This document shows, in pieces, positions 7,231 to 55,677 of a stretch of 64,000 nt of DNA. The stretch comes from Tetrapyrgos nigripes (lineage: Eukaryota > Basidiomycota > Agaricomycetes > Agaricales > Campanellaceae), in the NCBI GenBank assembly GCA_013368315.1, contig JAACJM010000031.1:62001-126000 (forward strand), in the 5' to 3' direction. The number at the start of each line of letters is the position of its first letter. Position 1 is the first letter of the stretch. The notes below the pieces were generated by a model. It saw only the letters and a list, made by a program, of their open reading frames with translations. It ran no database searches and had not been told where the DNA came from. The position numbers and the translations under genes are program-made.

Positions 7231-7235
7231 CCTTG

Positions 7236-7658: not shown

Positions 7659-7663
7659 CCTTG

Positions 7664-33264: not shown

Positions 33265-35482
33265 TCAATCCACCCACTCAACTAAATCCGAATCCACCGA
33301 GATATTCTGCCCTCCCACTTGCAAACTCGCCGCTGGAACATACGGCCCCTTTGGATCCATTGACTTCGCCATCATCCTCGTCCTGACACTCCTATGAACC
33401 CTCACCTTTTTGTCGAATATATATTTCTTAGCCTCTTTGCTCGGCGGTACATTCACATAAATCCTCCTTCCAGCCCACCAATTCGCTTCATGTGTATTCC
33501 CCCTAACCGGATCCCACTTCTTCATACGGAACCGCTCGAAAAGGTCCCACGTGTACCATTTGATAACGAGCATGTCGTAGATCGGCGCGAGAGAGTCCCA
33601 GAGGTCGTGTTCTTCTTCTGTACTAGTAGCCGTGACGGGACACTTTTTTTCGGAGTTGGATTTGTTCACGGATTCGACGGTCTGGACGATCGAGTCGTCT
33701 CGGAGTGGAAGAGGGGCGGGTCTTGGCTTCACTATCGGATAGAGACACAAAGGATCCATGCCCAAATGACTCTGGAGTTCATTGGCAGCGAAGATGATAC
33801 CTGTTTCCTTCTTGAAGCATTCTCGGATCATCCAACGTAGCGGAATGTTGGCAAGGTTGGGTTTGGTGTCATTACTAACTGATGAATATTGATAATAAGA
33901 ATTCGATGGTTCTTGGTTCAAGCAGCAAAGACTTACCAGATCCGCCGCCAACGTCTAAGCAATAACACAAGGAGGTTACCATTGTTGTTCGGGCGAGGAG
34001 AACTTGGAGATCCACGTACCACAATGAGCACCCGCAAACCATACCTGCTCAACATCAGTTTTGAGCTTTTTACCATCATTTTCCTTTTTGTACCACATGG
34101 ATCTATCAAAGCGAGCCCTCCTCTCATCAAGCGCAATAGCATGCCTGAAGGTCTTGAGATTGGGTGCTGAGGACGTGTACATTGCTCCAGTCGTAGTGAT
34201 CAAGCCAACGGAATTGACGGTGTCCCTATGTAAATGGATGGATTATCATCCTGAACGGAAAAACGATCCAATTGAATTAGCATATACGCACCATACACCC
34301 ACGAACTCAATCATAACCATCGCCGTGCGGTGTTGTTCAAGGAATTCCTTCAACTTGACGTGAAACTCATTGATAGAATCGGGGGAGAAAGATTTTCTCG
34401 TGGGCCCGAAATAGAGATTGAGTCATCATTTCTTGATTCTGGGGGGAGGAGACCGAAGAGACCGACTACGGCTGCTACACTGATGACAAAAAGGAAAAGG
34501 GGATGATACGATAGTCAATTCCATGGGAGCTTGAAGCAGCTTGTATAGATGGACTTACGTGCGAGCGGTGTAGGAGCCTCGAGAGAATCCTGCAACTCGG
34601 TGTCAGAATGCACTTCGCAGCTTCAGGGAGTAAAACCATACCAAAAAGACAGATTTTATCGCCTTCTTTGTCTGAGCAGAATGCATGCGCAATAAGTAAG
34701 AATCCTAGCAAGAATTTCGAACGACGTACATTGTTCAGTCAAAGTCTTGTAGGCATCTACAGCGAATATAAGATAAAGTGAGAATGCCACCAGGCGCAGA
34801 TCCACGCACCCATAACATGGTCCTCGAAGTTCCAAGCTATGGCCTTATCAACAGTCTGTGAACGATAATTATCAAAATCAGGACTTCTCTTCCGATGCCC
34901 GCATCTTAGGTTTCCAATGTGAAGAACGTACCCGAGATACAGGCCCATAGAATGGGATCTTCGAGCGATTGCTTCCTGCCTTCCACATTCCAATACCTTT
35001 CTGTAAACGCGATAGAATTCGAGGTCAAGACATACTTTGACTCGGAAAAGTTCGAGCTCAGTTACTCACGCGATAAAAGATAACCTGTCTCTTATTCCCC
35101 TCGTCGGAATCTACAACTGGTGCGACGACGAAAGTCTTCGGCTCGCCGGTTTTTTTATCGACTGTAGGGTCTAGTTCCTTTGGGTGGTTGTAGAGAAGTC
35201 GGGAGAATTGTATCACGTTGGTGACCTGTGAAGTAATATAACTTGAGTATATTGGTAGATGGAGGGATGGGTTGGGTACGTACATCGTCATCGATCCTGA
35301 GGAGAGGAATGAAGGAAAAAGGCGACGAAATTCAGCAAAATCTTCAGAATGAAAGATGCATCAAGGAGAAATAGTACTTACTCGTCTCCGGTCCCGTCGA
35401 ACATGAATATCAAGTTTCGTGGAGGGGCTTTAATATTAGGGCCTTGCGCATTTATGGGCGGAATAAATTTTGGACTCGACAT
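33265..35482 (-). pseudogene. DUF2235 (Tle1-like alpha/beta hydrolase) gene, 12 exons, frame disturbed in exon 9
   Basis: Exons: 35482-35382, 35296-35284, 35225-35070, 35000-34932, 34855-34810, 34756-34730, 34671-34642, 34589-34559, 34479-34292, 34225-34020, 33954-33937, 33878-33265. The product starts MSSPKFIPPI and shows RNLIFMFDGTGDE, HVMDAYKTL, the nucleophile elbow GFSRGSYTAR, FVGVWDTVNSVG, ALDERRARF, VWFAGAHCDVGGGS, then a C-terminal extension to VEWVD. This is the T6SS Tle1-like phospholipase/hydrolase fold widespread in fungi, probably cytosolic. Exon 2 is a 13-nt microexon. In exon 9 the frame after GLFGLLPPE does not join the frame of SPDSINEFHVKLKE, so either one indel inactivates it or I misplaced a splice site. 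The gene could be functional if the latter. Confidence 0.8.
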
Positions 35483-36375
35483 CTTCTAGTCTGTGCGAAA
35501 TTCGAGAGAGCCGGGGAGAGTTGGAATCGGAATGAGAGTTGATAATGAAGTTGAGGATAATATGTGAGATGGATAAGTTGCAAACGAAACCGAAGCTGAG
35601 CGAATGAAGGTGGGGGATTTCGGTAATCTCAAAGCCAGCCCAACCTGTTACTTATAAAGAGGGACATACTTCGCTAAACTCAAAGGTCGACGCGCCGTAT
35701 GCACTGAACCTGACTATACGTCAAAAGCCCAAGTTCAACGCAGTCGAACCTGCCAGTGTCCAGGAACGTTTCATCACGGAGCCGACTAGGAGCGGCAGCG
35801 ACTACATACATATGTATGTGGGACCAATGTCTATCATGCTTGATGTCGAGGGCTGTCACTGGAATCCAGTGTCAATGGAACTAGGTACATAAGTTTGAAA
35901 TAAGCACTTCACTTAGTCGGTGTTCTTACCTCCGAGCTCGGCTAGTTGATGCTCAGGGGTTGAAGGTTTGCTCCAGGGTCTCAAAGTTCTAGATCTCCAG
36001 TTACGGGTTCTAGGATCCAAACCCTGCTGAGTGGGGAGAGCATGTACAGACTCGAAATAGCGACGGAATTGGCACGGAACGTTTTGAGTATCAATTGCAA
36101 GTCTATGAGAGAGGGAGAGAAGATCGAGTGTAGGATTGATTTTGACGGGGAGGATAGAGTGTCAGGTTTATCCTATATATTCTATTCCTCTATTCCTATA
36201 TTCCTATATATTAAGATAGGACGGGCCTGGGAAGAAATAATATTTACATAATCATTACTAAGCAATGTCCCTACGAATCCCTAATTGATCCCTAACCAGA
36301 CGTCAGGGCCGCAGGCCCCGACCGAGCGAAGCTCGTATGCTGTTCAATTTGCACTTTTATTATTTGTACCCACAC
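35483..36375. other. Upstream region of the DUF2235 gene
   Basis: No gene is supported. It contains the presumed divergent promoter side, a TATATTCCTATTCC-like simple repeat near 36175-36215 and ends in CCACAC (36370-36375), the left target duplication of the transposon that follows. Confidence 0.5.
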
Positions 36376-36479
36376 TATGGTTGACGAGGAGGCTCAGGAC
36401 AAAATTTTTTGTACGTCCCAAGTCGCGGGTACCTGGGTCAAGGCCTAGGCCGCCTGTTCATGTCATCCCGGCGGTATTA
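36376..36479 (+). repeat. Left terminal inverted repeat
   Basis: 104 bp from TATGGTTGACGAGG to CGGCGGTATTA. It includes GTACGTCCCAAGTCGCGGGT and GGCCTAGGCCGCCTG. It pairs with 41307-41410. Confidence 0.88.
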
Positions 36480-36844
36480 CTATTAGAGCCCGAACTAATA
36501 TATTTTTCTACTGTGAGAACCTTCCGGAACATATAAGTATGCATAGGCAAGGTATCTCATCTCGTATGCACCAGCCCAGCGTACATGTCAACCCGTACTT
36601 TGATGATGTGGTCAATCACATCTACGTCATTTCCAAGCGGCTTTCAACTCTGGTAGGCACTTACCACTGACTATCCAGGTCGAGACCTCTTAACGGAGAC
36701 ATTGGGATTCTCGATGCATGACAGGTCCTCAACTACGAAGATTATTTTGTTTAATTCCCGCCTTTCTTCGACGCTGGGAGCTCTTTTTAAGGCCTTCCAT
36801 GCTGCAATTCCACGGACTTCAGTTCTTTCCTCCCTTTTCTCGCC

Positions 36845-39182
36845 ATGGGATATTGTCAGGATGGGTGTGGTCAGGTTTTTGACGCTCTTCCGAACGGCTA
36901 CAAGCTCTGCATGAAATGCAAGAAAATTCAGGATGCTCCGTCAGAGGTTGAGAAAAAGGCCATTCGAGTACGTGTCATTGTTTTGAGCTCTGACAACGCC
37001 GTTGACTCCTTCAAATTTCTAGGACACTTACCAGCAGTGTACCAACTGCTCTGCCGCCTTTCCCAACCTGGAGGGACCATATTGCGGACCGTGCCAGCGA
37101 ACGTTGAATGCAGGTCAGCTTTCCTGCCCCTACTTATTCTCTGTGATCTGTACTCACTCATTACTTACAGACCCTAAGCTCACAGAGCTGCAACAGCATA
37201 TCAGCACCTTCGACAAGGCCGCCACCAGCGAGCGCCTCAATAAAGGCTCCACTACGCAAAACCCTTCGCTCACCAAGGCTAACGAGATGAAGCAGAAGAT
37301 GGCTACTGCCAAGTCAGCCAGCAAGAACCTCAACGAGATCGTTCATGTCGACTGTACGCTCAACATCCTCATCAAGGGGAAATTGGTCAAGGTCTGTTCA
37401 GTAATGCATTGTTTTTCCCAAATGTGCTGTTCATCATCTGCAGTCCCCTATGCCCCCCGTCACCGATGTCTTCATGGGCACCAGAAAAGTCAATGACGTT
37501 TTTGACACCATCAGCAAAGGCCTTCTTGAGGCTTTTATGACCTCGGGTTTCAATACTCAACACAAGATTCCTATTAACTACAAGTTGGATTTGGATCCGT
37601 GCGTGTTCTAGCTCTCGTATCTTTGCACTTCATTGATGGTCATATTTATAGCTCCCAGCGTAGTTGGGCTGTTGGCGGCAAAACACCGTATACCATCACG
37701 CTCACCGACACTGTCCTCAACACGACCATCAAGGCCTACTTTGACGAGTTGTGCAGGAAGAGCATGGTTTCAGATAACTGTCAGAACGGTCGACGTCTTC
37801 CCTTAGCCGTGTCAATCCCGACCATTCCGGTAAGTAATCATTGTCCTGCACAAATGTCCTCCTGATCACTGATTATGTAGCTACATGATGACGATGACGA
37901 TGAGGACTATGAAGGCGCATCCGCACCTCACGCATCCAAGGCTATCAAATCACAATACGGCCGGAAACGAACTCATTCTCAAATTGCTCCTGGCTTGGAA
38001 AATGGTACGTTCATTTCTAGACTTGTTTATCACTACCTTTATAACTACGTGCAATGATTTCAGACATGCATATTGCTCGTTCCTCCAAGTATACTAGCCG
38101 CTGGGCTCTGAGGTCTCTTTTCGAGTATTGACTTCACACGATCACGAAGCTCACTTACGAGATCGATTCCTCCGGGAACGCTGTTGCTAGCGATGATCCT
38201 GCAGAGGATTTCATTGAGGTCGCAATAGGTTGGATACAGCACATCAAACAATCTGTCCCCGTTGATGGATATTTAGGGAAAGGACTTTATAAGTATGTGT
38301 TCTGGGTACATCTATCTTTTCCTCTCGTGAAATATAACTATTGTCCTGATGTATGTGCTCAGGGAAAATACAGTGGTCATGATGTTGCAATCCTTCAGTA
38401 CCAGCGTGATGCCATCGCCGAGTCCGATAGTCCCAAAACTGAAAATGCTCGTAACTTAGAGAAGGAACTTCGCCTGCTCAAGTTTGGGGATTACTTCATT
38501 GACTCGTTCCAAAGGCGAGCAGATGCGGAGGGTGTTATGCTTCCAGGTAAGCAACTGTATTCTTTACTCTTCTCTAATGTTGACATGCTGTCATATTATT
38601 AGCCTTGTCTTGGAACTCTAAGGATGCATTTCTCGCCAAACTGACCCAGCCACTGGACTCTCCTGTTGATGACAACGATACCAGTCTGGTGTTCGACACT
38701 TTCCTTGTAGTTCCTCTCCTTGACTTTGGTGGGCTGTTTGTCGAAAGGAAGTTTTCGGGAAACAATGAGGTAGGCAAGAACGATGCTGACCGCCTTGGCC
38801 AAGTTATGGATGCCTTTGCCCATCATGTTGTAGACGACTCGAATGGTGAATTTGTGTTTGCTGATATCCAAGGTATGCCATATCCCCCTTCAATGCCTGA
38901 CTCTATGTCTGATATAAACATGTACTTCAGGTCTTGTGGCTCCCTCTAAGGCCGTCATTTTATTCGATCCTCAAGCCCATACATAAGTAGTACAGTCCGT
39001 TGTACACCCGACTCTACTGAACATTTCTCAGGAAGGCAGGTGACTCTGGTCCTTGGGACTTTGGCGCATCTCAAGTCACAACATTCTGTGAGAGGCATCG
39101 TTGTGGTCATGTGTGCTGCGAGCTTGTGATGCCTTCCTTGAACAAGTATAGGACCGGACCACTTCGGATTGGCTTTGAGTAG
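36845..39182 (+). pseudogene. Alpha-type protein kinase gene, 11 exons, decaying
   Basis: Exons: 36845-36967, 37023-37113, 37171-37391, 37444-37598, 37651-37829, 37881-38004, 38064-about 38293, 38363-38546, 38603-38872, 38931-38982, 39032-39182. The N-terminus has two Cys4 modules (CQDGCG...CMKC and CTNC...CGPC). A central region of unknown function and an Asp-rich linker (DDDDDEDYEG) follow, then an alpha-kinase domain: LEKELRLLKFGDYF, VFADIQG, ILFDPQAHT, GPWDFGASQV and the zinc motif HRCGHVCCEL. Defects: in-frame TGA at 38129-38131 (fits CGA), a one-base phase mismatch between exons 7 and 8, and the exon 10 donor reads ATAAGT instead of GTAAGT. The ATP-binding Lys position reads Leu in VAILQY. 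Alpha-kinases phosphorylate Ser/Thr in helical segments; here activity is doubtful. Confidence 0.82.
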
Positions 39183-39281
39183 GAGGAAGAATAGTGTTCT
39201 GTCTATTTTCTTGGTAAAAAAATTCTGCTTGTATGTATGTAGCTAGAGGGCGACGCAAAGTCCTAAAAATACAGCCAGTAC

Positions 39282-40716
39282 TCATGCCTTCATCAGCGGC
39301 AGCATTTCCGTGAAAATGTGCCAGATGTTCTCCATTGTGACCTTGCCTACTCCAAGGGTGCCAAGAACCTGTTCAGCATGTTGGGCATATTCGGCAGTGA
39401 CGAACCAAATCAAATCCTCCCCTCCAACTTCATGCATTAACTGGTCAATCAAGTCCATGTCGACGTGCTGAAGATAATTCTGCGCATTGTATTTATGTGG
39501 CAGTGCAAATTTGACGTTAGGGGCTATGCCAGAGGGCAGGTATTTGTTCTTATCCTTTCTTCCCGTATGATTGTTTTCCCTGTCTCGTAACTCGTCAAGT
39601 TCCTGTTGAATGGTCGTAGACCAGAGGTATTGAGCTAGCATGCTACCAGTTAGTATGTCAGTAGCTATGCATACCATCTTGAAAGGAACTGTGTACTAAT
39701 GTTCTGGATCAGCTTTGTTGTAAATACCCTCGCCACGACTCCAGAAAATCTTGACGTTTTCTCCCCAACTCAGGCGCACCTGCAGCCATCCTCTTTCGAT
39801 CGTTATGTTGTGGACACTTTTCAGGAATACATGGGCAGGGAGCTCTTCAATTGGAATGTCTGGAGAGAAAATTTCTCTAGCGAACACATCAGCTGAACTG
39901 TTCCCATCATCCGATCAGTAAGAAGTGAGTCATACCTCAGCGCATTCGCAATAGCAAAGATCCCTCCAGTTTCACTTCCCTTGTCGGTAGTCATCTGTAC
40001 TGACATCCCACCCTGCGAATGTATCAAGCGCAAGTAAAGGTATGAGATTGAGAGTTTGAGACGATTATTTGGCACAACCCAAAGGCCCAACCACTTCCCT
40101 GACCACTTGTCACGTACACCCCATATCAGAAATCCAATACTGGCAAGCTTGTCATGACCATCGCCGCTCCACTCATGATTTGGACCGAGAGAGATTAGAG
40201 GTGCACGAGGAATTTTTTTGGCCGTTGGTTCTCTCACCTGGAAACCATCAGGATCTTGAGCACGCATCTCACCTTCAATGAAGTCTCTAAATGGTTGAAG
40301 AGATTAGAAAGTCCTGTTCTCACAGAGGAGGTCTCAGTGATGCTAAATTGGGAAAGTGGATACACACCTTGTGAGATGGACGCCAGTATCTAACATTATG
40401 TTCTCTCGAACAGTTCTGGGTCCCCTATGTGCATTGGGATCTTTGGCCATCTGATCAAATACAAGTTGACGCTTCTCCACGTCAGGCATACTGTGCGTGG
40501 TTGCACCACTAGCTTTAATTTTCCAGTGGGCTTTGTGTCGGGTGATACTGGACGCGCTATATATGGTGCGTCAGGATTCAGCACATATGGCAAGGATGGT
40601 AACCGGGCGCCGACAACTGACCTGATTTTGATGTCATGCTCTGCGAGAATCAATTCTGAAAGCTTGTTTTTGTCGGTGACCCTGCGCTGATGGTATTCTA
40701 GAAGGATATCCCTCAT
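39282..40716 (-). CDS. Fungal integrase-core transposase, 5 exons
   Basis: Exons: 40716-40622, 40556-40378, 40286-39936, 39897-39697, 39642-39282. All junctions are GT-AG and in phase, with no stop. The N-terminal part has a helix-turn-helix-like stretch (LAEHDIKISASSITRHK), then KRQLVFDQMAKDP and GPRTVREN. The catalytic core reads WSGDGHDKLASIGF (Asp), VQMTTDKGSETG (Asp) and SVHNITIERGW (Glu), a D-D-E arrangement in an rve-like fold. The C-terminal part has LPSGIAPNVKFALPHKYN and GGEDLIWFV. It would cut and join the 104-bp TIR ends. An additional 5' exon upstream of 40716 is possible, since a TGA precedes the ATG by 11 codons. It converges on the kinase gene with a 99-bp gap. Confidence 0.85.
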
Positions 40717-41306
40717 TCCTTCGTCCCCGACCTTGGCTTTAGGAGGTCAGTACTGACTCGTAGGCAGCGGGAAATATCGCAGGCTCACAGCAATCCTTAT
40801 ATTGGTTTTTGCCTGCAGGATTATTGAGAGGCATAGTGACAATGCGACAATACTGGTGTACGTGGAGGAGAAGCAATGACAGGCTGGATGGCAGCTGAGG
40901 ACAGTACAAAGGAGTAAGGAAACTTCAGGGTGAAACTGCCTTGTACTTATATTCCAATGTTGCAAGCCCAGCGACTTGAAAGATGCTGAACACATGCTGT
41001 AGACTTGCACTTGCATGTATACGAGATTCCGCAAGCTAGAACTGGCAATAGATAGCCTACGAGCACTTTTAGAGAATTCATAAATAGTACACATGCATCC
41101 CAACAGGCGAAGGAAGAGGTAAAAGCAGCCTCTAGGGTCAAAGCTTTGATTAGAACTTGCAGAAGAAAGGCTACTCACTCCTTTTCGTATGTTCATGCCG
41201 CTCTAACAAGGTATCTACCTATAACAAACTCATCTTATAAAGGATACATAGTAAGTATTTACATCCATGTACGCATGTCATGGACAACTTGTTGTACGTA
41301 TGATTC
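40717..41306. other. Promoter side of the transposase gene
   Basis: Between the transposase start and the right TIR. No supported gene. It presumably holds the promoter and perhaps a short 5' exon of the transposase. Confidence 0.4.
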
Positions 41307-41410
41307 TAATACCACCGGGATGACATGAACAGGCGGCCTAGGCCTTGACCCAGGTACCCGCGACTTGGGACGTACAAAAATTTTTGTCCTGAGCCTCCTC
41401 GTCAACCATA
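41307..41410 (-). repeat. Right terminal inverted repeat
   Basis: 104 bp, inverted copy of 36376-36479, ending GCCTCCTCGTCAACCATA at 41410 and followed by CCACAC. Confidence 0.88.
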
Positions 41411-41451
41411 CCACACACACCCGAAATTTTCCGCACTCATAGTCGAAATTC

Positions 41452-42880
41452 GTGTTGTAACGGTTCGGGATAAAACTATTTAGGAACCCCTACACCGGCG
41501 GGAACCCCCCGGGAACCCCTTTGCTTATTTGGGAACCCGGTTCCCATCACATCATGTCACACTGGGTCACATCCAGTCACGATGCGAGGCGCTGGCGAGG
41601 ATACACGTATTGTAGGCGTAGATTGTAGCGAAAAATGTCCATTAATATTAGAAACATGTCTAGATACACAGAGACACGTAGAATAGGGGAGAAAACGCGT
41701 AATGGGTGGTAAAAATTGGGTTAAAACATTATGGAAAAGTACTTGCGGGAGGTGAAGGACAGGTTGCATGGCTTGCTGACATGTAGAGGAGATAATGAAG
41801 AACTGATTGTGTCCAAACTACCTTAACGCAGGGTTCTGAGGCATAGAAATCAAAACGGGGAAGAGCAGGCACAAAAAGAAATGTCAGTTCAACAACGGCA
41901 CGCACCTCAGACCACTCTCTACAGGCCAAACTTCGTACACAGCGCCTCAAAGACCGCATACTCTCACATACTATGCCAAGCTGAACTCGAAGACCTTGGA
42001 AACTTCAATGGAAAGACCAAAATCGCTATGATAATGTGAAGAGCTTACGACTGCGGAGAACGCGTGAGTATGTATGTAGTAGGTCCTCGCCAACGGCATC
42101 CTGTAGTGAAGGCAACATGCGGTGGGAACACTGGCACAGAAATTTGGTGTCGGAGACTGTAGAACAATGCCAAAGACGACGACCACTATTTGATCGCGAC
42201 TCAAGCGTGACAAAGGTGTGACAGACGCTAACTTCGTGTTTGTGGCGGGTTCCTAGGAACTCCGGGGTTCCCGCCAATGCAGGGGTTCCTAAATAGTTTT
42301 ATCCAACGGTTCGACTACGGTTGGCTCTGGCTCGGCTCCGGCTCGGCTCCTTATGTAAATGGCTCGGCTCGGCTTTTAGATCCGGCTAGTCACGACTCGT
42401 GTCGCTAAAATTCCGTGAAAACCACTTCCCTTCTAGACATGTAGATAGGAATGTAGGAGTGAGACCTTACAAGTCATATTGACACTCCAGGAGTGAAATC
42501 GAGCTTCTAGATATGGTATGCGCACTCTGAACCAAGAGATACATCATTTTCCTTAATATTGTGCTAAAATTAGAAATTAAACAACCGTGAGAACTTATCA
42601 AATTAAGGCACAACAACTTTTTTGAGTTACGGTCTCATGGTCTTTCTCGCTCAAAGTACACCGAACTTGCTTCAAAGACACTCCCTGATGTCAGCTACTG
42701 AGACAGTACACTTTAAGCTAATTTCTGGTGTCACTAGAGGGCAGTCTCTCTGAGAGAATTTGACTCGGCTTTTATGACTCGAGCCAGAGTCGGTCGAGAG
42801 CCACCTGGAGCCGAGCCGCGGCTCAAAAACCGGCTCAGCTCAGCGGCTCGCTGGAGCCAAGCCGGACCGTTTACAACAGT
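41452..42880. mobile_element. hAT-like MITE rich in GGCTCGGCTC, with a nested element
   Basis: Left end GTGTTGTAACGGTTCG and right end, in reverse complement, ACTGTTGTAAACGGTCCGG. Inner flanks on both sides are rich in GGCTCGGCTC repeats. The flanking 8 bases are CGAAATTC (41444-41451) and CGAAATCC (42881-42888), one mismatch, as for hAT-type insertions. A second element (41468-42304) sits in its left end. No gene inside. Confidence 0.5.
41468..42304. mobile_element. 837-bp MULE-like MITE with 9-bp target duplication
   Basis: Inverted ends of about 41 bp: GGATAAAACTATTTAGGAAC followed by CCCTRCAYYGGCGGGAACCCC. They are flanked by identical AACGGTTCG at 41459-41467 and 42305-42313. A 9-bp duplication is characteristic of Mutator-like elements. 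The interior has short open frames only. Confidence 0.75.
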
Positions 42881-43122
42881 CGAAATCCCCGCACTCATTC
42901 AGGTTTCCCGCACTCTCAATGTCTAAGTTGTTATTTTTTTCATAAAACTTAAGACATTTTTCTCTGTATTGACTTACGTAGGAGTGGAATATTTAGCATA
43001 ACACAGAACGAGGACGATGGAAACTGGACGCAAGACCTTTTAACGCGACGTGTCAGGGTCACGTGAAGGTAACATGACTCAAAAGTTTCATGTGACTCAT
43101 GCCAATACCTTCGGCACTCTTT

Positions 43123-43822
43123 CACCGCGGGCGGCGATGGGTATTTGCAACCCGTTTTTGAGCAGGCTTAAATCTCGAATTGTTCGCACAGTTTTTTTCC
43201 CAGATAAAATTGGCTTACTTGCTGTTGAAATGACAAAACTTGTATCATAAGTATTTTCTAAATTATGCTATGATCAAACATTATAATTGATTTGTGGGAT
43301 AAAAACCTCCAAATAGGATTAGATTTAGGTGGCTTTGCAAAAATGTGTTCAAACAAGTCAAGTATCTGTGCCTGATTTGGCGTGAAAATACTCAAAATTT
43401 TCTGACGCAGATTTGGCTCACATGCCTGCAAAGTATTTGCCACGCTTTTTGCATTGTGAGAGAAACCATTTACGTAAATTTCTGTCACAGTGCAAAAAGC
43501 GTGGCGAATACTTTGCAGGCATGTGAGCCAAATCTGCATCAGAAAATTCTTAGTATTTTCACACCAAATCAGGCACAGATACTTCACTTGTTTAAACACA
43601 TTTTTACAAAGCCACACAAATCTCATCCTATTTGGCAGGTTTTTATCCCACAAATCAATTATAATGTTTGATTGTAACATAATCTAGAAAATACTTATGA
43701 TACAAGTTTCGTCATTTCAATGGCAAGTAAGCCAAATTTTATCTGGGAACAAACTGTGTGAACAACTTGAGATTTAAGCCTGCTCAAAAATGGGTTGCAA
43801 ATACCCATCGCTGCCCGCAGTG
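43123..43822. mobile_element. 700-bp CACTA-like foldback element
   Basis: Two arms of about 340 bp in inverted orientation around a 20-30 bp spacer near 43460-43490. The ends are CACCGCGGGCGGCGATGGGT on the left and, in complement, CACTGCGGGCAGCGATGGGT on the right. TTT flanks both sides (43120-43122 and 43823-43825), a 3-bp duplication as in CACTA elements. The matching frames in the two arms are just the palindrome read twice. Confidence 0.7.
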
Positions 43823-44039
43823 TTTGCCACGTCGTGTTGTCTTTACTACCACCACCAGCCCAGCGTGTACCAGACGTGCTCAAGCCTTTTCCCTGATGTG
43901 CAGCCACAGAAATCCGTTTTTTATTGCTCTCTCTATCCTTTCCTCTTCACAATAGTCCAGTTCAGACAAGCTAATGTTCACGCGTCTGTGTAGCAGGAAT
44001 GGGGTGTGTGCGCTTCGGGCAGTGTATTAGTGCAAGGTG
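43823..44039. other. Short spacer before copia B
   Basis: Nothing recognisable. It holds the left flank of the copia B LTR (AAGGTG before 44040), with no 5-bp duplication matching the other side. Confidence 0.5.
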
Positions 44040-47500: not shown

Positions 47501-50447
47501 GTTCATTAGGAGGGTAAGTCTGTCTGGGAGTTTTGCCTTCAAGACAGCCTTTGCACAAAGGAAGATCCTTTGGAATAATGAATTCGGGAGTGCCAAGGGT
47601 GTGTTGTCGGACATGTTTTAGAACATCACGAGAGGGATGCCCTATACGACGATGCAAAATCTCGTAGTCGATAAGATAAATCAAAAGATTGGCTTTAGAA
47701 GCGACAATTTTCGACTTGTGTGGAAGATAGTATAGCGTTTCTTCCGGTATACGCTTTGAGAAAGTCAAGAATGTTGTATTTCTCGAAATGGTGATATGAT
47801 CGGAGTTACCGCGCATAAACATGTTGTCATTTAAGAATTGACCAACAGATAAGAGTCGTTGATTTAGATCGGGAATATAATAGACCGGATATAATTTCAT
47901 AACTCTTTTACGTTGAGAGATCAGGACTGTTCCGGATGCACGAATTTTCGTGAATCCATTGGCAGTTTTTACTGGAATTGGTTTTATATAACTCAATTCA
48001 ACAAAGTCATTGATGTCGAACGTAAAATGCGCTGATGCTCCAGAATCCAGTAACCATCCATCACTGAAGTGGATTTTGACAGTATCAGATCTCTTTTTCT
48101 TACACCTCTGGCATAGTGAGAACAGAGTGCCACAGGCACATAAATATTTATTGTTGCCGCCAGGGCTAGTGTACAGATCATTATAAATAAAAGGGGTAGT
48201 CAAACCCAGAGGAGCGGTATGTAATAAATATATACATGAAGAACCTGCTTCCGAATTACGAGCTGCTGGAAAAAGCGCATCAGTACTTTTATTCATAAGA
48301 TCTGAATTGAGATCTGACCTGAGATAACCGTTGTCCAAGCCGGAGGGTTCAGAGTCTAAGGACCATCCATAATTATTTGCGGCATTGACGGTAACCATGA
48401 CTGGGGTAGAAGGTCGTGGACTTGGAATTCCGTACGATGCGGTGTCCTCTACGGGTGACGTAGGTAGACTCATCCTGCCGATCGATGGCGGAGTCGACAT
48501 GTACTCGAGGTCGCTGGTTTCGGATAGGCTCGGAGACATGCTCCGGAGTTCTGGCATTGAACTCGGAGTTGGAGCCCTGGAGGGTAATTCCATCCCTCCT
48601 AGTCCGATTGTTGCGTCTCGTTGCCAGTCGATTAGCTCGTCGTACCTTCCATCCTCGTTTTGGAGATGAGGAGTCAGCCATTCCCATCCCGTCGAAGTCG
48701 TGCCAGGTGTTGGGCTTGCAACACGGCTGGATGGCAAAGATTGAGTGGTCATGCCATTGGGAGGTGCAGGCTGTGAGCCACTTGGCATCTCGCTGCGGAC
48801 TGCAGCAAGTCGTTGGACAAGAGAAAGAGTGCCACGGGTTCCCGTTGGGGCAACGGTGTTCAGTGCCGTTCTGAGTGGTTCCCCATAGATGTGTAGGGGA
48901 TCCTCGGGATTCTGAAACCTTTCCCCAAGGTACACTGCGCATTCCATCATCTCGGCAGCAGGATCCGCGGCAATCCGGTCGATAAGTGGAACAGGTGTCC
49001 GGATGTCCTGAGAAACCTTTGCACCTGACTCCGTCGTTGTGGTACCAAATACACTTCCGAGTTCCGAAGTGTTCACCAGAGTGTCCTCGTTCCAGCTGGC
49101 ATCTTCTCCTTGAGCGCATGCCATATCGGCATCTGGATCGGTCTGAGTTTCGGGATATTCACCGTTCCAACCATTCCAGTTGCCAGCATCACCCCAACCA
49201 TCAGTAGATGATTGAAGGTTGTCCCAATAGATGCGTTCCGTGAGAGTGCGTTTAGAACGGGGAGCAGGAGTAAGTGGAGTGAAGGAGGAAGAATCAGGGT
49301 GAGACATGACGACATCCTCAAGAGTAGCAATAGTCTCACCAGATGGTCTAACGCCAATATCGCGTGCAAGGTTGATAGCTCTTTTGGTACCTGTGAAGAA
49401 GGCGTCAAAAGGCTTTTCCGTTTCCATTAAAAATGGCTTACGGATATCAACTGCAGCGGGCGTGTTGACGACGGTGACTGTGTGCATCATGGGAGACATG
49501 TCGTCGTTGACAAGATGTGCCTGGCCCTGTCTCTTGGCCTGTTCGAACTTTCCAGCTCGACCTCCTCGACGGAAATTGGCTTTTCCTTTGCCCTTTCCCT
49601 TGCCCTTTCCCTTGTTGTTCCCATTAGAGCCGCTGGCTCCGTTAGCGCCGCTGCTGCTGCCACTAGGGCGCTGCTGCTGCTGCTGTTGGAAACTAGGGTT
49701 ACCATCCTTTCGCTTGACAGCTGAAAGACGGTTGGCATGGGCTTTCCCAGAAGGCCCCTTGAATGCTCCTTGGCGAGATTCCCAGATATTGACAATCTCA
49801 GACTGCAATACATCGAGATTTGTATTGTCAATCTCCTCAATAGAGTTTTGAGTATACTGATTGATGAGATACTCATATCTGGGAGGTAGTTTGGAGATGA
49901 TGAACATGACGATGAGGAAGTTGGCAACTTTCGTAATGGAAGTGGCTGAGGTGTCATCAGTGGGGATTCCAGCGGCACTGACCCTATCGAAGTGCATGCG
50001 AATAAGTTCGATCGCAGCGCTAGGGTTGGCGTCATTAGGAATAGTGATGGAGGTAGCACGTTTGAAATCCGTGTAGATTGCGGAAACACCAGGTTTCCCA
50101 TAGGTCTTCTTGAGAAAGACCCAAATTTCCTTGGCGGTAGTCATTCCAAGCGTCTTCTGACGAACGGGAGGAGAGAGACGAAGTTTGATAGACCCCATGG
50201 CCTTATCGTTCTTCTCATCCCAGTCAGCCTGTTTCTTTTGAGCCGCCGTGATAGCCTCAGATTGAGCCGCCGCGTCTTCAGCAGATAGAGGGGAGACGGT
50301 ACTCACTTCGGCATCATCGGGGCGATCAGATCTAAGGACAGAACTAAGTCCAGTAGCCTGCAACCAGGCGACAAGGATGTCAGCCCAGATGTTGAAATCA
50401 ACACCGGCGAAGACGGGGACAGTAGTCATCAGAATGTTGGAGGACAT
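44514..50447 (-). CDS. Copia B Gag-Pol polyprotein (1,977 codons, intact)
   Basis: The frame is open from 50483. I choose the ATG at 50447 (MSSNILMTTV) because copia A and C begin with the same MSS context. Gag: FNIWADILVAWLQATGL and a Gly/Lys-rich RNA-binding tail with no CCHC knuckle. Protease: WLLDSGASAHF, Asp near residue 801. Integrase: HRRIGH...CKGC zinc motif, catalytic Asp 995 (HTDL), Asp 1057 (SDMGGEF), Glu 1093 (NGRAER). A Pro/Arg-rich acidic linker follows. RT: KARLVAKGFSQVEG, DVRSAYLYGLLDEE and YVDDALF near 1660. RNase H: YTDSDWGSD, SSTEAEYMAL, GDNQGS and ADLLTKAL. One frame with no stop is the usual copia layout, so the element may be competent if expressed. Confidence 0.93.
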   Translation of the reverse strand: MSSNILMTTVPVFAGVDFNIWADILVAWLQATGLSSVLRSDRPDDAEVSTVSPLSAEDAAAQSEAITAAQKKQADWDEKNDKAMGSIKLRLSPPVRQKTLGMTTAKEIWVFLKKTYGKPGVSAIYTDFKRATSITIPNDANPSAAIELIRMHFDRVSAAGIPTDDTSATSITKVANFLIVMFIISKLPPRYEYLINQYTQNSIEEIDNTNLDVLQSEIVNIWESRQGAFKGPSGKAHANRLSAVKRKDGNPSFQQQQQQRPSGSSSGANGASGSNGNNKGKGKGKGKGKANFRRGGRAGKFEQAKRQGQAHLVNDDMSPMMHTVTVVNTPAAVDIRKPFLMETEKPFDAFFTGTKRAINLARDIGVRPSGETIATLEDVVMSHPDSSSFTPLTPAPRSKRTLTERIYWDNLQSSTDGWGDAGNWNGWNGEYPETQTDPDADMACAQGEDASWNEDTLVNTSELGSVFGTTTTESGAKVSQDIRTPVPLIDRIAADPAAEMMECAVYLGERFQNPEDPLHIYGEPLRTALNTVAPTGTRGTLSLVQRLAAVRSEMPSGSQPAPPNGMTTQSLPSSRVASPTPGTTSTGWEWLTPHLQNEDGRYDELIDWQRDATIGLGGMELPSRAPTPSSMPELRSMSPSLSETSDLEYMSTPPSIGRMSLPTSPVEDTASYGIPSPRPSTPVMVTVNAANNYGWSLDSEPSGLDNGYLRSDLNSDLMNKSTDALFPAARNSEAGSSCIYLLHTAPLGLTTPFIYNDLYTSPGGNNKYLCACGTLFSLCQRCKKKRSDTVKIHFSDGWLLDSGASAHFTFDINDFVELSYIKPIPVKTANGFTKIRASGTVLISQRKRVMKLYPVYYIPDLNQRLLSVGQFLNDNMFMRGNSDHITISRNTTFLTFSKRIPEETLYYLPHKSKIVASKANLLIYLIDYEILHRRIGHPSRDVLKHVRQHTLGTPEFIIPKDLPLCKGCLEGKTPRQTYPPNERRATRPFQIIHTDLHEYPTISYHKYKYIIVFFDDYTSDAWIRFLTDKKQPLTATRQFLAMVETQYKTKVEQWMSDMGGEFIKGTYREMLLEKGVKILNSAPYIHQQNGRAERFIRTLMDKSLAMMKLACLPESWWEYAVRHGLYVYRRTPLRRHKWITPFEMLEKEKPRIDHLRVFGCGAYVFKPEETRKNKLASKSELMTYLGVAPGERGNLFMRTNNAEFTSPQAVFEEDFFPRCKTQSRNSKQLPIESSQGDDTPLPQIPDDDDEDFHHRPPRIPSTRRPDQLRDDEPEQDPPPSSPDSDSEPRRTVTPPPVETPPPQAPRKPRAPRQRRPPTEPTRRSERTGTVPKRYGDKHPVEVERDLEPQIAADKRAEAKAKADRDARRENRRQQAAEQQVPGPSSASGSAPQGEQQAESDDSARPESEEMAEPCREGGVSINFLLMQAIAPGEIDSHLLIQKVTSKNDGNQPNVRNIREWTFKDIARLPIAEQEEWKVACREELEALHKRDTYELVERPKDRKVIKNRWVFDIKTDGRKKARLVAKGFSQVEGIDFDQIYSPVVRFETVRLIFALAALKGWHVSGVDVRSAYLYGLLDEEIYMEQPEAFKVKGQEHKVVRLLRALYGLKQAGLAWWKSLDKSMAELGFKRIISDAGIFIHKRYDANKNLIENSIVIAVVYVDDALFCGANKTLVLRLKGDFMKRWECRDLGDAKEFLRMRITRKGSKISLDQCAYLDKILETYGMQNAKASATPLPGNYHPLPLPNDTPVNYTLRQSYQEIIGSLLYLMLGTRPDISFAVTKLAQFAANPSQEHYNKAKDICRYLVGTRKYALVYNGRGGEGLSAYTDSDWGSDPETRKSQTGFFLQLAQAPFSWTSRQQKTVALSSTEAEYMALSDCSRQVCWFKTLLSEIEYPLHAIPIYGDNQGSIFIASNPVTDKRTKHIDIRYHFVREKVIDETVKLFFIEGSNNPADLLTKALDRVKFEKFRKQLGLQFYN

Positions 50448-50750
50448 TTTTTGATAATATCTGGGGAAGTCAACTGTCAGCATTTATCCATATGTAGAAT
50501 AGGAAGGCGGCATTAAAAGCGCCATGCGAAAGTGAAAAGAGGCAGCGATAAACGCGCCATGACAGTGACTACTCCCCAAGATTGTCAACAACTGCAGCTG
50601 GACATAGGTCCTGCGCTGTTGGACATATCGTCAAGCCATGAAAGGCGACGCAGGCTGCCACAAGGGCGCCACAGGCAGCCATGAAGGCGCCATCCAGGTA
50701 GTATGCGAAGTCTATGGTTTGCAGCCATTGAAGGCGCTCCCAAGGGCCTT

Positions 50751-50764
50751 CGGGGCCCATAACC
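50751..50764 (-). promoter_or_regulatory. Copia B primer-binding site (half tRNA-iMet type)
   Basis: In element orientation GGTTATGGGCCCCG follows the 5' LTR directly, identical to the site in copia A. Confidence 0.7.
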
Positions 50765-51135
50765 TGTTAAGCAGGCATGGTACGGCTTGTACACTACTAA
50801 ACGCAGTGGCAACTACGCTTACTTACCTGGGGATAAGAGTTAGCTTGTAGGGCTAGTTAGAGGCTTTGTAGAGCGATATGGGTTAAGTGTAAAACTTATT
50901 ATTTTGAGGACTATCTACAAGTCCTTATATACCTTTTAGGAGGTACAAATATATGTAAACTAATACTAGAGTAACAATAAGATTCTATTGTACTGGATAG
51001 AACAATGCTGGTTTCGTACACTATTGTAGTACTATACTTTATTGTCTATATAATCTTATTGTTCTATATATAACTACTACTTATTGTTCTACATAGAATA
51101 CGTTGATGGCTGCAACTGAATGCGCCAATTCAACA
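50765..51135 (-). repeat. Copia B 5' LTR
   Basis: 371 bp. In element orientation it starts TGTTGAATTGGCGCATTC and ends GCCTGCTTAACA. It contains TATATAAGGACTTG, a likely TATA/start region. Confidence 0.9.
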
Positions 51136-51571
51136 GGCAAGCAAACTATTCGTCAATGCTCAAGCGCTCAAGGACATGACGACTTTGAGATATTCACCTG
51201 GATGGCTAGCGTGACGACAGTGGCGCGAGGTCTACAAGCCAGATAGAGGTATCGGATACGGGACCGAAGTTCCGAAGTTACCGGACGTGTGGCACGCGAG
51301 TCCAGGATCTAAGCTTGCGTTTCCCGCCGACGCTAAACAGAGACACATCACTACGCAATCTGCAGTCCGTTGTTAGTGGTATTCTCACATCAGGTGCGTT
51401 ACCGTAGTTGCGTCTCTGTCTGCTCTTTCTGACTCTTCTTAGAGCGAAGACATCCCATCCAGTCTCTCAGAATATCACCGTCAAACAGGTCCCCTCTCTT
51501 CATCTTCCGCTCTCTCTCTACATCACCTCTACACCTTACACATGTCCAATCCGTCTACGCATTAACACAAG

Positions 51572-52819
51572 GACAAGAGTCAGACTCAGAACTACGGTTT
51601 GAGGAGTGTGTTTGGGGTGACTGTACGATGGTCTCCTACGGACATTGCGCAAGGAATCGATAGTCGTTCTGGCGATATATGGTGAGTCTCTTCAGAGTCT
51701 TTCTGCCTGGTTTTCGTCTTCTTTCTTTCTTTTTACGTTCTAGCGCTCTGGAGTTCCTCAGTTCCCTTCTTCGTTCTCTTGCTTTACTTATTTTATTCTT
51801 GCTTTATTCTCACCGTTCTCCATTCTCCCTTCCATTCTATGGTCTATACCCATACCTGTCCTCGTCTATGCGTAAACTGCCTACTAGCATCCCCATTCAT
51901 ATCTTGTCTTCTCCTTCATATACTTATCTTCTACCTTGTATTCGTTCTTATCTGCCGTTCCATTTTGTCTTGTTTCCATTTTCCTTCTCCCTTTTACTTT
52001 TCCCTTTTCTATGTTGGAACTTGGCGTTTCGTTATTCTTTCCTTTTCCCTCCTTCTATCTTTCTTTATTCTCATTGTCTACAGCGTATACTAACCAAACC
52101 TCACTCTTCTTGCTCTGATCTGCTCTCCGTCTCACTCCTCACCACCTTTGTGACATATCTCCCTCCCACTCTCGACTCTCAAATACCAACCAAGGTCCAA
52201 CGCAGCACCTATAGTTACCTCTCCTCGATCTCCCAGCACTAATCCCCCAAAAAGCAAGAAGTCAAAAATCTTATGGGGCTTCGCTGTCGGGCTCTACTCG
52301 TTAATAGGAGTCAGGTTTGTTGACGTTTGGGGGTAATCTGGATGTGGATTGGCTTGGATTAGGTGGGTTGTTACATTCTTTTCTTTTCTTTTCCTTCATC
52401 ACTTTCATCTTCATATCCTCGTCCTCGTCCTCATTGTCTCGTTCCATTCCCGGCCATGCCTTAGTGTTCATCGATGTATCTTCGAACCCTTTAAAATTCT
52501 CTTGGTCTTAATCTTATCTTGTTTCTCCACGTTTCTTAGTTTCTTCATCGTGGGTTGTTGGTGTGTTGGCGTTTAACTCCGGTCTTTCATAGTCCATCTT
52601 TTGTCTTTGAGTCGCTTTCTTTCCTCATTTCTCATTTCTCATTATTATTGTTGTCTTCTCTAATGATTAGACTCCATCTAACCTGACTCTCGACCTTTTT
52701 ACTTTTTCCTTTATCCAGGCTCTTTCTCATCTTTGTCCAATATCAGGCTCTTTAGGTGGGACCCAAGGGAGTTGTGGGAAGAGTTGGGGTCTCAATATGG
52801 CTCGAGATGTATGAAGTAA
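51572..52819 (+). CDS. Spliced gene of unknown function, 3' exons
   Basis: Three exons join in phase: 51572-51681, 52237-52314 and 52747-52819. They read DKSQTQNYGLRSVFGVTVRW...SGDI, then TNPPKSKKSKILWGFAVGLY (a short hydrophobic stretch), then LFRWDPRELWEELGSQYGSR and a TAA. Donors GTGAGTC and GTTTGTT and acceptors CTCCCAG and ATATCAG are plausible. The first intron is about 555 bp, long for this genome and very pyrimidine-rich. Upstream exons (about 51441-51489) are possible but their frame is ambiguous. I recognise no family; it could encode a small membrane-anchored protein. Part of it is duplicated at 62513-62775. Confidence 0.4.
51966..52290 (+). repeat. Duplicated segment, copy 1
   Basis: Pyrimidine-rich sequence CCATTTTCC...CTTTTCTATGTTGG...TACAGCGTATACTAACCAA...CTCGATCTCCCA. 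It is matched with gaps by 62513-62775 in the same orientation. Confidence 0.65.
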
Positions 52820-54889
52820 AGGTGGGAGAAAGCAAGAATCGAAGAGGTAGTACGAGGGAGGGCATAGTTAGTTGCTCGTTGGAAGCTCGTTGGTTAGATG
52901 GCACTCGGTACGTAATCTTGCTTCTCATAAAACCTCACTAAGTCTCACCTCTCAGGACGACGATTCATACATTGACATCTCGACGTCTCGATATCCTCCT
53001 CCCTTCCCTTTCCCGGTCGCAACTGAGACACATCCTTCCAATCAGTCTTCCTCTTCGAACTTTTTCTTCCCCACTGGACTACAGACTTGGCTCACCCCCA
53101 AATATATCTACCGTCGTCCTCATGTTGTGTTAACGCTCAGGACCATATAGGCTTTAGCAGCGGAAATAAACACAGCGTAGAAGCTATCTATTCATCTTCC
53201 AATGAGGGATTTCCAATACTTGTAGACATTTAAGGTCGTGAGCTGCTGCTATGCAAATGACAATGCGGACCTAAGTACGTGCTACTGCAGAAGAGGGGGA
53301 AATTTCTCAAGCTAATTCCGACAGAGTCAAATGATCACCCAGATGAATTTAACTACTCAGAGCGGTGAGAGTTCGTCTCCAACATCGAGCAGCTGTGAGC
53401 GGAAGTAATTTCAAGAATGATCGATTTTTTTGTCTCGATCACCTCAATGCTTTTCAGCTTCATATAACCGGGATCGTCGGCTGGTCTCGTAAGGTCGTCT
53501 TTGGGCTGCCTCAGTCATCAAAACCTTTCTCGTTAGACACCTGGATTTACTCCACCAATCCAACTCGTCCGCTCCGTATTGTAATATAGGACAGAAGAAG
53601 TCAAAATGTGAGGAACAGAAGAGGAAGAGAGAAGAGATGCACCGAAGCCGCCAGTCAATGAGATCATGCCGACCTCAGAGGTCATTCCCAGTGAAAAACG
53701 ACACAGAGCAGAGCCGACTGAAAACCGACCAAAATCGACTGTGTCCGGCCCCAGCTGAAATGGTGGGCCTTGTCGGCTCCAGTCGGTAGTAGTCGTAGGG
53801 ACTCGTAGAATTTTACATGCAGCATGACAGATTCCGACTGGATCTGGCTTGACCCGACTGGTTTGCGCTGGTTACGGCACTCAGATAAACGCCTGTAGTG
53901 TCAGATAGCGTCGGACCTAATCAGATTTCAGCGGGCATTTCATCTCGGACAGGATCAGAAATACATATAATTATCAGCTTCTACTACATTACACGATATC
54001 TGACTATATCCAACTACAACTGCATAATACAAAGTCCAGATCCTAACAAGAAAACCAAAGGTGAACCAAGTTTACTAAGTCCGCAGTGGTGCAAAACACG
54101 AAGTGGAAGAGGGATAGAGACAGCGAAACTCTGAAAAGCAAAGAATAAGAATGGCAACGAAAATAAATAAGAAGATTACATACCACCCATTGTTCTTGCA
54201 CTTATCGGCCGGTTTTTGACACGCCTAGAATCTAAATTAGTATTGAGTTAGGAACTAGAGTAAAAGTCGAGACGAACCGCTTTAACTTCGAAGGTCTGTT
54301 GAGATCAAAGCTTAAAAAGTGAGACAGAAATCGAGGTAGAGACAAAAGGCGGGTCAGCGTTACTCAATCCCAAATGAAAGAAAGCATGTACGCACCTGTA
54401 GTAGCCTATAATTCGGGCCAGGCTGTTACTTCAGTACCTTGGAGCATCCCATCCACCCTGCCCGCATACAGCTTCACCTAGCAAAGAGTCCTACCACATA
54501 TTCCATGTAACTATCTTCTAGAAGAATGGTCGTCAGCTTGTTGACGTGTTTGACGCGTTCTGGTAGGTTGTTATAGTGTTTGGTGGTATCTAGTAGTGTC
54601 GGTGGGCAAGGGAGATAGAGCCTCGCACGTTAGCCCGCCATAGAGGAAAAGTCGAAATGACAATGCCTTGGAGAAGAGAGGAGGGAGGTAGTATGGATAG
54701 TGGGAGAGAGCAGGAGGGAGGGAGAGAGGGCCCGGGGAGATGTGGTGGAAGGGACGAAAGGACGCGTCATCCCCGACTCCGGACCGAAGGGACAGGAGGA
54801 GGGACGTGTCCCACCGATCGATCAACAAATTCGGGTTCTGAAATTTTAAACGGCGATTCCCGCATGAGGTCATTGTTTTCAGCGTTCCA
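52820..54889. other. Intergenic segment
   Basis: No supported gene. 53690-53900 is rich in CGACT/AGTCGG motifs and may be a decayed repeat. 54660-54800 is purine-rich (GGAGGGAGG-like). Short frames in both are compositional. Confidence 0.4.
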
Positions 54890-55272
54890 TTGCCTTCTAC
54901 GCTTTACCACCATGACTCTCTCGCAATGCCTCGGTCTTGCTGCCAGCGCGTGCCCATTATTCCTTGCTCAATGTTGTCAGAGCTCTTGCAACTTTTGTCT
55001 GCTATCGACCTATTGCATCTCCACCAGCGTGTAGTAGACCATACAGCTCCGAACAAGCAATCTAAAATATTGAGAGCTCGTTTCAAAGCCGATGTTATTG
55101 CCGAAAAGCTACTTTATTCAGAGAATTTCGTCTACAGCTTTCTTGTTTGCTCACGAATATGAAGCAAAGTGTCAAGTAATGGACCGCGCTTTCGGTGAGG
55201 GCTTTTGTCGTCTGTTCAGTGAAAAGGTTTTATATTCAATGGTTCAGTCTGGGTGCTGTCAGAACCGATCAA
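54890..55272 (+). pseudogene. Possible gene fragment cut by copia C
   Basis: A frame around MLSELLQLLSAIDLLHLHQR and ILRARFKADVIAEKLLYSEN may splice near 55133 to FAHEYEAKCQVMDRAFGEG and LFSEK. It is then interrupted by the copia C LTR at 55273. I recognise no family. The composition looks coding, but the start and splice sites are uncertain. Confidence 0.3.
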
Positions 55273-55555
55273 TGTTGAGCAGGCTATGTTCTATATACGT
55301 AGCGGCAACTGCATACTTACCTGGGGATGTAGAAGTGCTTGTTAGAGCGGTTTGTTAGAGGTTAAGAGCGATGAGTGTTAAGGGAAATCCTTATTATTGT
55401 AAGGCAAACTACGAGCCCTTATATACTGTTCTAGATAGTACATGTGACTACTTATCTAAGAACTACTGATGTAAGTAAGCGTAACTAACTAGATTACTAT
55501 CTAATCTACATCTAATCTAATGTTGATGGCTGCTTACTAATTTGCCAATTCAACA
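55273..55555 (-). repeat. Copia C 3' LTR
   Basis: 283 bp. In element orientation TGTTGAATTGGCAAATTAG... to CATAGCCTGCTCAACA. It is preceded in element orientation by GCAAGGGGGAG (55566-55556). Confidence 0.9.
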
Positions 55556-55677
55556 CTCCCCCTTGCTAAGCTGCACCATTAGTGCGTGTAAGCATAAAGG
55601 CACTATAAGCAGCCAAGGTTCATCTTCGTTATTTGAGATACGTTGTACCACGGTTCTATGATACATTATACCAAGGC

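What the first reader, a model, noticed from the sequence alone, without database searches (positions are those of the whole stretch)
36376..41410. A TIR transposon that carries an alpha-kinase beside an integrase-type transposase
Seen: 104-bp inverted repeats, a 6-bp CCACAC duplication, an intact five-exon D-D-E integrase gene and, inside the same boundaries, an eleven-exon alpha-kinase gene. The two genes converge with a 99-bp gap. Known: alpha-kinases are expanded in some basidiomycetes and rve-like integrases drive several DNA transposon classes. Inference: this is a cargo-carrying transposon family that could explain how alpha-kinases spread in these genomes. I know of no described family with this combination.
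Basis: partly seen in the sequence, partly recalled or inferred. Interest (0 to 1): 0.92.

Follow-up and report, generated by a model that had tools for sequence, protein, structure and literature searches.

The report
Jumping gene carrying a protein kinase
This stretch of a mushroom genome is a cut-and-paste transposon that carries a protein-kinase gene next to its transposase; the same pairing recurs in several related elements of this genome, so many of this fungus's alpha-kinases look like transposon genes, but a transposon of this type with an alpha-kinase had already been reported in other fungi.

Summary
Window 36376-41410 is a 5,035-bp element with 104-bp inverted repeats, a CCACAC duplication, an intact DDE transposase (six exons by homology, not five) and a convergent alpha-kinase gene whose copy here is probably broken. 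The host is Tetrapyrgos nigripes. An apparently allelic contig has the empty site with one CCACAC and about 99% identical flanks, so the unit moved as one. A second copy (about 90% identical) has its own 6-bp duplication. More distant families hold the same two genes inside terminal repeats; one has six copies, 99.4-99.8% identical, with 6-7-bp duplications at all five sites read. 22 of 42 alpha-kinase matches lie within 8 kb of such a transposase (0.4 expected), all 22 on the opposite strand; 35 of 57 transposase loci have no kinase match that near. dN/dS suggests purifying selection on the kinase. Ends (TATGG..CCATA) and duplication fit IS3EU; a tree test was not possible. Kojima (2025) already reports fungal IS3EU elements with transposase and alpha-kinase in opposite orientations, with a TET gene between. 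So this is a TET-less mushroom member of a known kind. The less-charted point is that many alpha-kinases here appear to be transposon genes.

The parts
36370..36375 (.). left target-site duplication CCACAC
   Evidence: single copy at the empty allele C297
36376..36479 (+). left terminal inverted repeat, 104 bp, begins TATGGTTGAC
36845..39182 (+). alpha-kinase gene, 11 exons, 596 codons plus stop; Pfam PF02816; Cys-rich N-terminus; in-frame TGA at 38129 and no GT donor after exon 10 (38982)
39183..39281 (.). 99-bp gap between the two convergent genes
39282..40834 (-). DDE transposase gene, six exons (40834-40789, 40736-40622, 40556-40368, 40286-39936, 39876-39697, 39642-39282), 413 aa, no internal stop; presumed catalytic D159, D218, E261; Pfam PF24764 rva_4
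41307..41410 (-). right terminal inverted repeat, 104 bp, ends GTCAACCATA
41411..41416 (.). right target-site duplication CCACAC

Best explanation
A cut-and-paste DNA transposon of the IS3EU type in Tetrapyrgos nigripes. Its DDE transposase most likely binds the 104-bp TIRs, excises the 5-kb unit and joins it to a 6-bp staggered target, giving CCACAC twice (inferred from ends, duplication and empty allele). The alpha-kinase is a second gene of the element, present in several distant sister families and, judging by selection, kept because it helps the element, most likely by phosphorylating the transposase or a host factor that limits transposition or silences it (inferred, not shown). This copy probably moved recently (found in one of two haplotypes), but its kinase is probably now broken.
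For: TIR and TSD. Empty allele: joined 300-bp flanks match C297 over all 600 bases at 99%; C297 matches 2.8 kb left (99.1%) and 2.6 kb right (99.3%) with one CCACAC; a 1.2-kb flank segment has exactly two matches in the genome, C31 and C297. Second copy C261:11478-18586 with GATGAT. Gene pair inside inverted ends at 8 of 8 loci examined (8 of the 22 kinase matches within 8 kb of a transposase; at 5 more, the other F7 copies, one or both ends were seen; 9 were not looked at): window, C261, C31:138449-144839 (CTCCAA), C6:1154861-1161965, C20:523742-531362, C190:97402-103870 (GGTTGCA), C41:430081-435639, C58:344605-351614 (CTTAAA). Flank duplications at 7 of 8: four of 6 bp, C190 7 bp, C6 and C41 5 or 6 bp. 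Five F7 sites read on both sides: 6,6,6,6,7 bp. 22 of 42 kinase matches within 8 kb of a transposase, 0.43 expected, 22 of 22 on opposite strands. dN/dS: kinase 0.32, transposase 0.27 between the two close copies; 0.08-0.10 for the F7 kinase against three relatives. Other species: 3 of 8 kinase hits share a contig (by length) with a listed transposase relative.
Against: 35 of 57 transposase loci have no kinase match within 8 kb, and 15 of 42 kinase matches have no transposase within 15 kb. Both close copies have damaged kinases, so the kinase is not needed in cis for each copy. C20:523742-531362 shows no TSD. C190 and C41 end in TA but not in TAYGG, and the F7 transposase is only weakly alike (best domain E 4e-5), so the families may span more than one superfamily. 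No comparison with Repbase IS3EU transposases was possible, and the transposase profile has no convincing match among solved structures (best E 0.036, a prenyltransferase). The F7 dS is saturated (about 2). Kinase and transposase identities correlate only weakly without the F3 family (12 of 120 permutations as high; 12 of 720 with it). 5 of 8 kinase hits in other species show no listed transposase on the same contig.
Confidence: 0.9

Rival explanations
1. The kinase serves the host (adaptive cargo) and the transposon is only its vehicle.
For: Alpha-kinases are said to be highly expanded in rusts (PMC4469406, passage) and one rust alpha-kinase is listed among 46 genes under diversifying selection (PMC4150398, passages).
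Against: The kinase recurs beside this class of transposase in several distant families and in three other mushrooms, as expected of an element gene; copies sit at unrelated places, one of them absent from the other haplotype.
Confidence: 0.2
2. The kinase is a neutral hitchhiker captured repeatedly by chance.
For: 35 of 57 transposase loci lack a kinase match within 8 kb; both close copies have damaged kinases; two gene arrangements exist, 5 convergent and 17 divergent of 22.
Against: Kinase dN/dS below 1 in all four comparisons made (0.32, 0.08, 0.10, 0.09); 22 of 22 close pairs on opposite strands; related kinases in families whose transposases are at most about 55% identical.
Confidence: 0.2
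3. The TIRs belong to an element that merely landed around or beside an old host kinase gene.
For: Nothing in the calls beyond the window itself.
Against: The empty allele lacks kinase and transposase together, and the C261 copy contains both.
Confidence: 0.02
4. It is another element with 6-bp duplications and an integrase (Polinton/Maverick remnant, or GingerRoot rather than IS3EU).
For: GingerRoot shares 6-bp TSDs and mostly TA..TA ends and was not separated from IS3EU on the published tree; Polinton has 6-bp TSDs (PMC10045372, passages).
Against: The element is 5.0 kb and the seven others measured are 5.6-7.6 kb; fungal IS3EU is described with these ends and an alpha-kinase (PMC12730594, passages).
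Confidence: 0.06

Closest known systems
TET+ IS3EU transposons of rusts and, by the word 'all', Tuber indicum (Kojima 2025, PMC12730594; outline, abstract and passages seen)
   Same: DDE transposase plus alpha-kinase in opposite orientations; 6-bp TSD; TIR over 30 bp; ends TAYGG..CCRTA (TSD, TIR and ends are stated for the rust families).
   Different: No TET/JBP gene here; Agaricomycete host; the two genes here are convergent with 99 bp between them (the passages state only opposite orientations, with the TET gene in between).
GingerRoot (described in PMC10045372, passages)
   Same: 6-bp TSD and mostly TA..TA ends; not separated from IS3EU on the published tree.
   Different: Characterised from a clubmoss; the passages seen mention no alpha-kinase.
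Alpha-kinases MHCK A, TRPM channel kinase, eEF2 kinase, ALPK1 (solved structures)
   Same: C-lobe matches by profile, including DIQG, the DP(Q) motif and HxC...C; the only three structure matches at E 0.001 or better for a model of a relative (P0123) are alpha-kinases, best 1ia9 at 2.7e-9.
   Different: N-terminal lobe aligns poorly (Pfam covers profile 89-185 only); Cys-rich N-terminus; model of moderate confidence (mean pLDDT 60.1, pTM 0.45) and large rmsd (12.5) in that match.

Membership tests
IS3EU | 6-bp target-site duplication | tested here: met
   CCACAC with one copy at the empty allele; GATGAT at C261; 'usually 6 bp' per PMC10045372
IS3EU | TA..TA ends, in rust fungi TAYGG..CCRTA | tested here: met
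   TATGG..CCATA; definition from PMC12730594 and PMC10045372
IS3EU | TIR longer than 30 bp (rust families) | tested here: met
   104 bp
IS3EU | DDE transposase falls in the IS3EU clade on a tree | not testable with these tools
   No Repbase sequences on hand; shown only: rva_4 domain, presumed D and E nearly invariant, second D in 23 of 26 rows
TET+ fungal IS3EU | alpha-kinase and transposase in opposite orientation | tested here: met
TET+ fungal IS3EU | TET/JBP gene between the two | tested here: not met
   99 bp between the genes; the 3 TET matches of the genome are on contigs without a listed kinase match
Ginger1/Ginger2 | 4- or 5-bp target-site duplication | tested here: not met
   6 bp here; Ginger lengths from PMC10045372
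KDZ (Zisupton) | 8-bp target-site duplication | tested here: not met
   6 bp here; Zisupton length from PMC12730594
Polinton/Maverick | large element with its own DNA polymerase B (recalled) | tested here: not met
   5,035 bp with two gene models spanning 36845-40834; Pfam scan of those two proteins only
Alpha-kinase (PF02816) | C-lobe catalytic and zinc motifs | tested here: met
   PF02816 E 9.6e-17; profile match to MHCK A, TRPM kinase, eEF2K; the zinc motif lies in exon 11, which this copy may no longer splice in

The most novel reading that the evidence does not exclude
The alpha-kinase is an ancient second gene of IS3EU-type transposons across Dikarya, so the alpha-kinase expansions reported for rusts and other basidiomycetes are in large part transposon gene expansions, and the kinase licenses transposition or counters silencing by phosphorylating the transposase or a host factor.
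Probability: 0.4. Interest if true: 0.75.

Novelty: new member of a known kind. Interest (0 to 1): 0.5.

Why it matters
Alpha-kinases are called highly expanded in rusts (PMC4469406, passage), stand in a table of domain comparisons of wheat rusts under protein modification (PMC5295586, table row only seen), and one is listed among genes under diversifying selection (PMC4150398, passages). If many of them are transposon genes, such counts and scans need masking, and a eukaryotic transposon with its own protein kinase becomes a testable system for how elements regulate their transposase or the host. The polymorphic insertion here and the near-identical six-copy sister family give material for such tests.

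Tried and rejected
Rejected: a host kinase trapped by TIRs (the empty allele lacks both genes); Ginger and KDZ (TSD length); Polinton (size, gene content). My first five-exon transposase model, used, was replaced after the alignment with relatives showed a 7-residue insertion and missing parts near the N-terminus. F6 (C240:108000-117000) was searched and no transposase was found there. A tree test of kinase against transposase was reduced to a distance comparison on 6 pairs, inconclusive when the most distant pair is dropped. The first protein search with the whole kinase scored only the 7992 candidates sharing most words and found only the window's own protein; the kinase-region search found 9 including it. 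The transposase profile found no convincing solved structure. Two long-range synteny probes fell in a high-copy repeat and told nothing about allelism; the probe at 34300-35500 was informative. No Rfam match at gathering scores and no tRNA in the window. Kojima's supplementary data and Repbase were not available.
Full report
What is there. Window 36376-41410 is bounded by 104-bp inverted repeats that agree at 102 of 104 positions and flanked by CCACAC on both sides. The 29-base tip, with up to 3 mismatches, occurs only at these two places in the window and in none of 100 shuffles. On the plus strand, eleven exons from 36845 to 39182 encode an alpha-kinase. On the minus strand, six exons from 40834 to 39282 encode a 413-residue transposase with Pfam rva_4 (five-exon model). 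The presumed catalytic residues are D159, D218 and E261: in the alignment of 26 sequences the first D and the E are nearly invariant, the second D stands in 23 of 26 rows. That these are the catalytic residues is recalled from related integrases. The stop codons are 99 bp apart.

State of the genes. The transposase model has no internal stop and aligns over 399-411 positions with three relatives of other mushrooms. The kinase has an in-frame TGA at 38129 and no GT donor after exon 10. The public model of the same gene (P0121) leaves out the segment with the TGA and ends right past the missing donor, so the HxC...C motif in exon 11 is left out. I read this kinase copy as probably non-functional.

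Host. P0121 is named as Tetrapyrgos nigripes and lies on a contig of 631,795 bases, the length of contig C31 that holds the window; taxonomy: Agaricales.

It moved as a unit. The two 300-base flanks, joined with one CCACAC, match C297:62340-62941 over all 600 bases at 99%. In the fetched stretch of C297 the left flank (33538-36375) is 99.1% and the right flank (41411-44039) 99.3% identical, with a single CCACAC at the junction. A flank segment, 34300-35500, has exactly two matches in the genome, C31 and C297, so C297 is best read as the other haplotype, in which neither gene is present at this site. Insertion in one haplotype is the simple reading; a clean loss from the other is not excluded. 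A second, decayed copy on C261 (11478-18586; about 90% identical, with two insertions and a left tip mixed with that of a sister family) has its own 6-bp flank repeat, GATGAT. The whole-element search found no other full copy (its counts are lower bounds).

Sister families. I examined eight loci with both genes: the window, C261, C31:138449-144839, C6:1154861-1161965, C20:523742-531362, C190:97402-103870, C41:430081-435639 and C58:344605-351614. Inverted ends enclosing both genes were found at 8 of 8. Flank duplications were found at 7 of 8: CCACAC, GATGAT, CTCCAA and CTTAAA (6 bp), GGTTGCA (7 bp), and two that can be read as 5 or 6 bp (C6, C41); C20:523742 shows none. The ends of C190 (TAGCG) and C41 (TTACC or TACC) are not TAYGG, and one end of C6 and of C20 reads TACAG. 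Pairwise, transposase identity to the window's is 54% (F2, C31:138449), 41% (F3) and about 25-31% (F4, F5); the F7 transposase of C58 was found only by profile (domain E 4e-5 to 7e-4). F7 has six kinase-bearing copies, 99.4-99.8% identical over about 3.1 kb, each with a transposase match about 4.6 kb away. Both flanks were read at five of its sites: CTTAAA, CGCAAC, CTTGGG, GTAACA and the 7-bp CTATTCC; the sixth, C243, shares the right flank of C154 and is probably its allele.

Genome-wide. PF02816 gives 42 matches. Three transposase queries give exon matches that cluster into 57 loci. 20 of 42 kinase matches lie within 5.5 kb, 22 within 8 kb and 27 within 15 kb of such a locus, against 0.30, 0.43 and 0.77 expected at random. 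All 22 pairs within 8 kb are on opposite strands, 5 convergent and 17 divergent; of the 27 within 15 kb, 26 are. Of the 22, I examined ends of 8 fully, of the 5 other F7 copies partly, and 9 not at all. The binomial tail assumes independence, which copies of one family and allelic contigs violate; by my grouping at least six nucleotide families are involved (F1-F5, F7). Against the reading: 35 of 57 transposase loci have no kinase match within 8 kb, and 15 of 42 kinase matches have no transposase match within 15 kb. The broader rva_4 Pfam search (170 matches, not all listed) was not used for the count. TET/JBP has 3 matches, one above the cut-off, on contigs without a listed kinase match.

Other species. 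The transposase has 182 relatives at E 0.001, 120 listed; the named ones are, as far as I recall the genera, Agaricomycetes, and a few have no name. The kinase-region search found 9 proteins including the window's own.

Selection and co-divergence. Between window and C261, dN/dS is 0.32 for the kinase (424 codons) and 0.27 for the transposase (229 codons); exons with gaps were left out, and the C261 copy has 5 and 2 stops in the codons compared. The F7 kinase exon against three relatives gives 0.08, 0.10 and 0.09 with dS near 2, so the values are rough. Identities of six kinase-transposase pairs correlate (r 0.88; 12 of 720 permutations as high), but without the most distant pair only r 0.57 (12 of 120).

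Kinase fold. A profile of the kinase relatives matches MHCK A, eEF2 kinase, TRPM kinase and ALPK1 in the C-lobe. A model of P0123 (mean pLDDT 60.1, pTM 0.45) matches the TRPM channel kinase 1ia9 at E 2.7e-9; the only three matches at E 0.001 or better are alpha-kinases. Activity is not shown, and the ATP-binding lysine was not assigned.

Comparison with the known. IS3EU is described with TA..TA ends and usually 6-bp TSDs (PMC10045372, passages), and in rusts with TAYGG..CCRTA ends and TIRs over 30 bp (PMC12730594, passages). [quoted passage not shown] The window element matches ends, duplication, TIR and gene pair and lacks the TET gene. A tree placement could not be made. Searches pairing alpha-kinase, MHCK or IS3EU with transposon terms, fungal groups or gene-family expansion listed PMC12730594 as the one paper that by its passages joins kinase and element; I opened passages of PMC10045372, PMC4469406, PMC4164029, PMC4150398 and PMC5295586 besides, and saw the rest as listings only. 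Subscription papers are mostly not in that library, so other reports may exist.

Verdict. A probably recently mobile, now kinase-damaged member of an IS3EU-type family. The kinase-transposase pairing is already in print for other fungi; its occurrence without TET in a mushroom, in several distant families, with an empty allele and near-identical copies, is the added knowledge.

Noticed in passing
window 2371-4027 and 4558-10232: Two long arrays of a 9-bp unit (TCTGCCTTG; GCAGACAAG), the same unit in opposite orientations, about 183 and 624 copies, with strong strand composition skew.
   Followed up: no
window 50000-57900: High-copy repeat: two probes each gave the maximum of 40 scored matches, several at 99-100% identity, about 7 kb apart in C31, C35 and C522 alike.
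   Followed up: no
window 41468-42304: A short repeat with 41-bp inverted ends directly beside the element; its left part has many copies at 84-97%; a similar one lies at L011:5091-5908.
   Followed up: no
G000:C261:11237, G000:C261:21817, G000:C142:18673: Tips of a sister family (nearly the same first 35 bp, then a different sequence) without a detected partner end or matching flank duplication in the stretches fetched.
   Followed up: partly
G000:C31:144882-146693: A 1.8-kb element with 32-bp identical ends TACGGTTGCC and a 5-bp flank repeat CCGAG, possibly a non-autonomous relative next to the second kinase-bearing element on C31.
   Followed up: partly
G000:C240:110542 (also C426, C256): Alpha-kinase matches in a segment present three times (94-99% alike) with no such transposase found in the 9 kb read at C240; a reading frame that looks esterase-like (recalled, no call) lies downstream.
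   Followed up: partly
G000:C139:203655 and G000:C151:149467: Two kinase matches about 1.5 kb from a transposase of the other (F7) type but in convergent order; their ends were not fetched.
   Followed up: no
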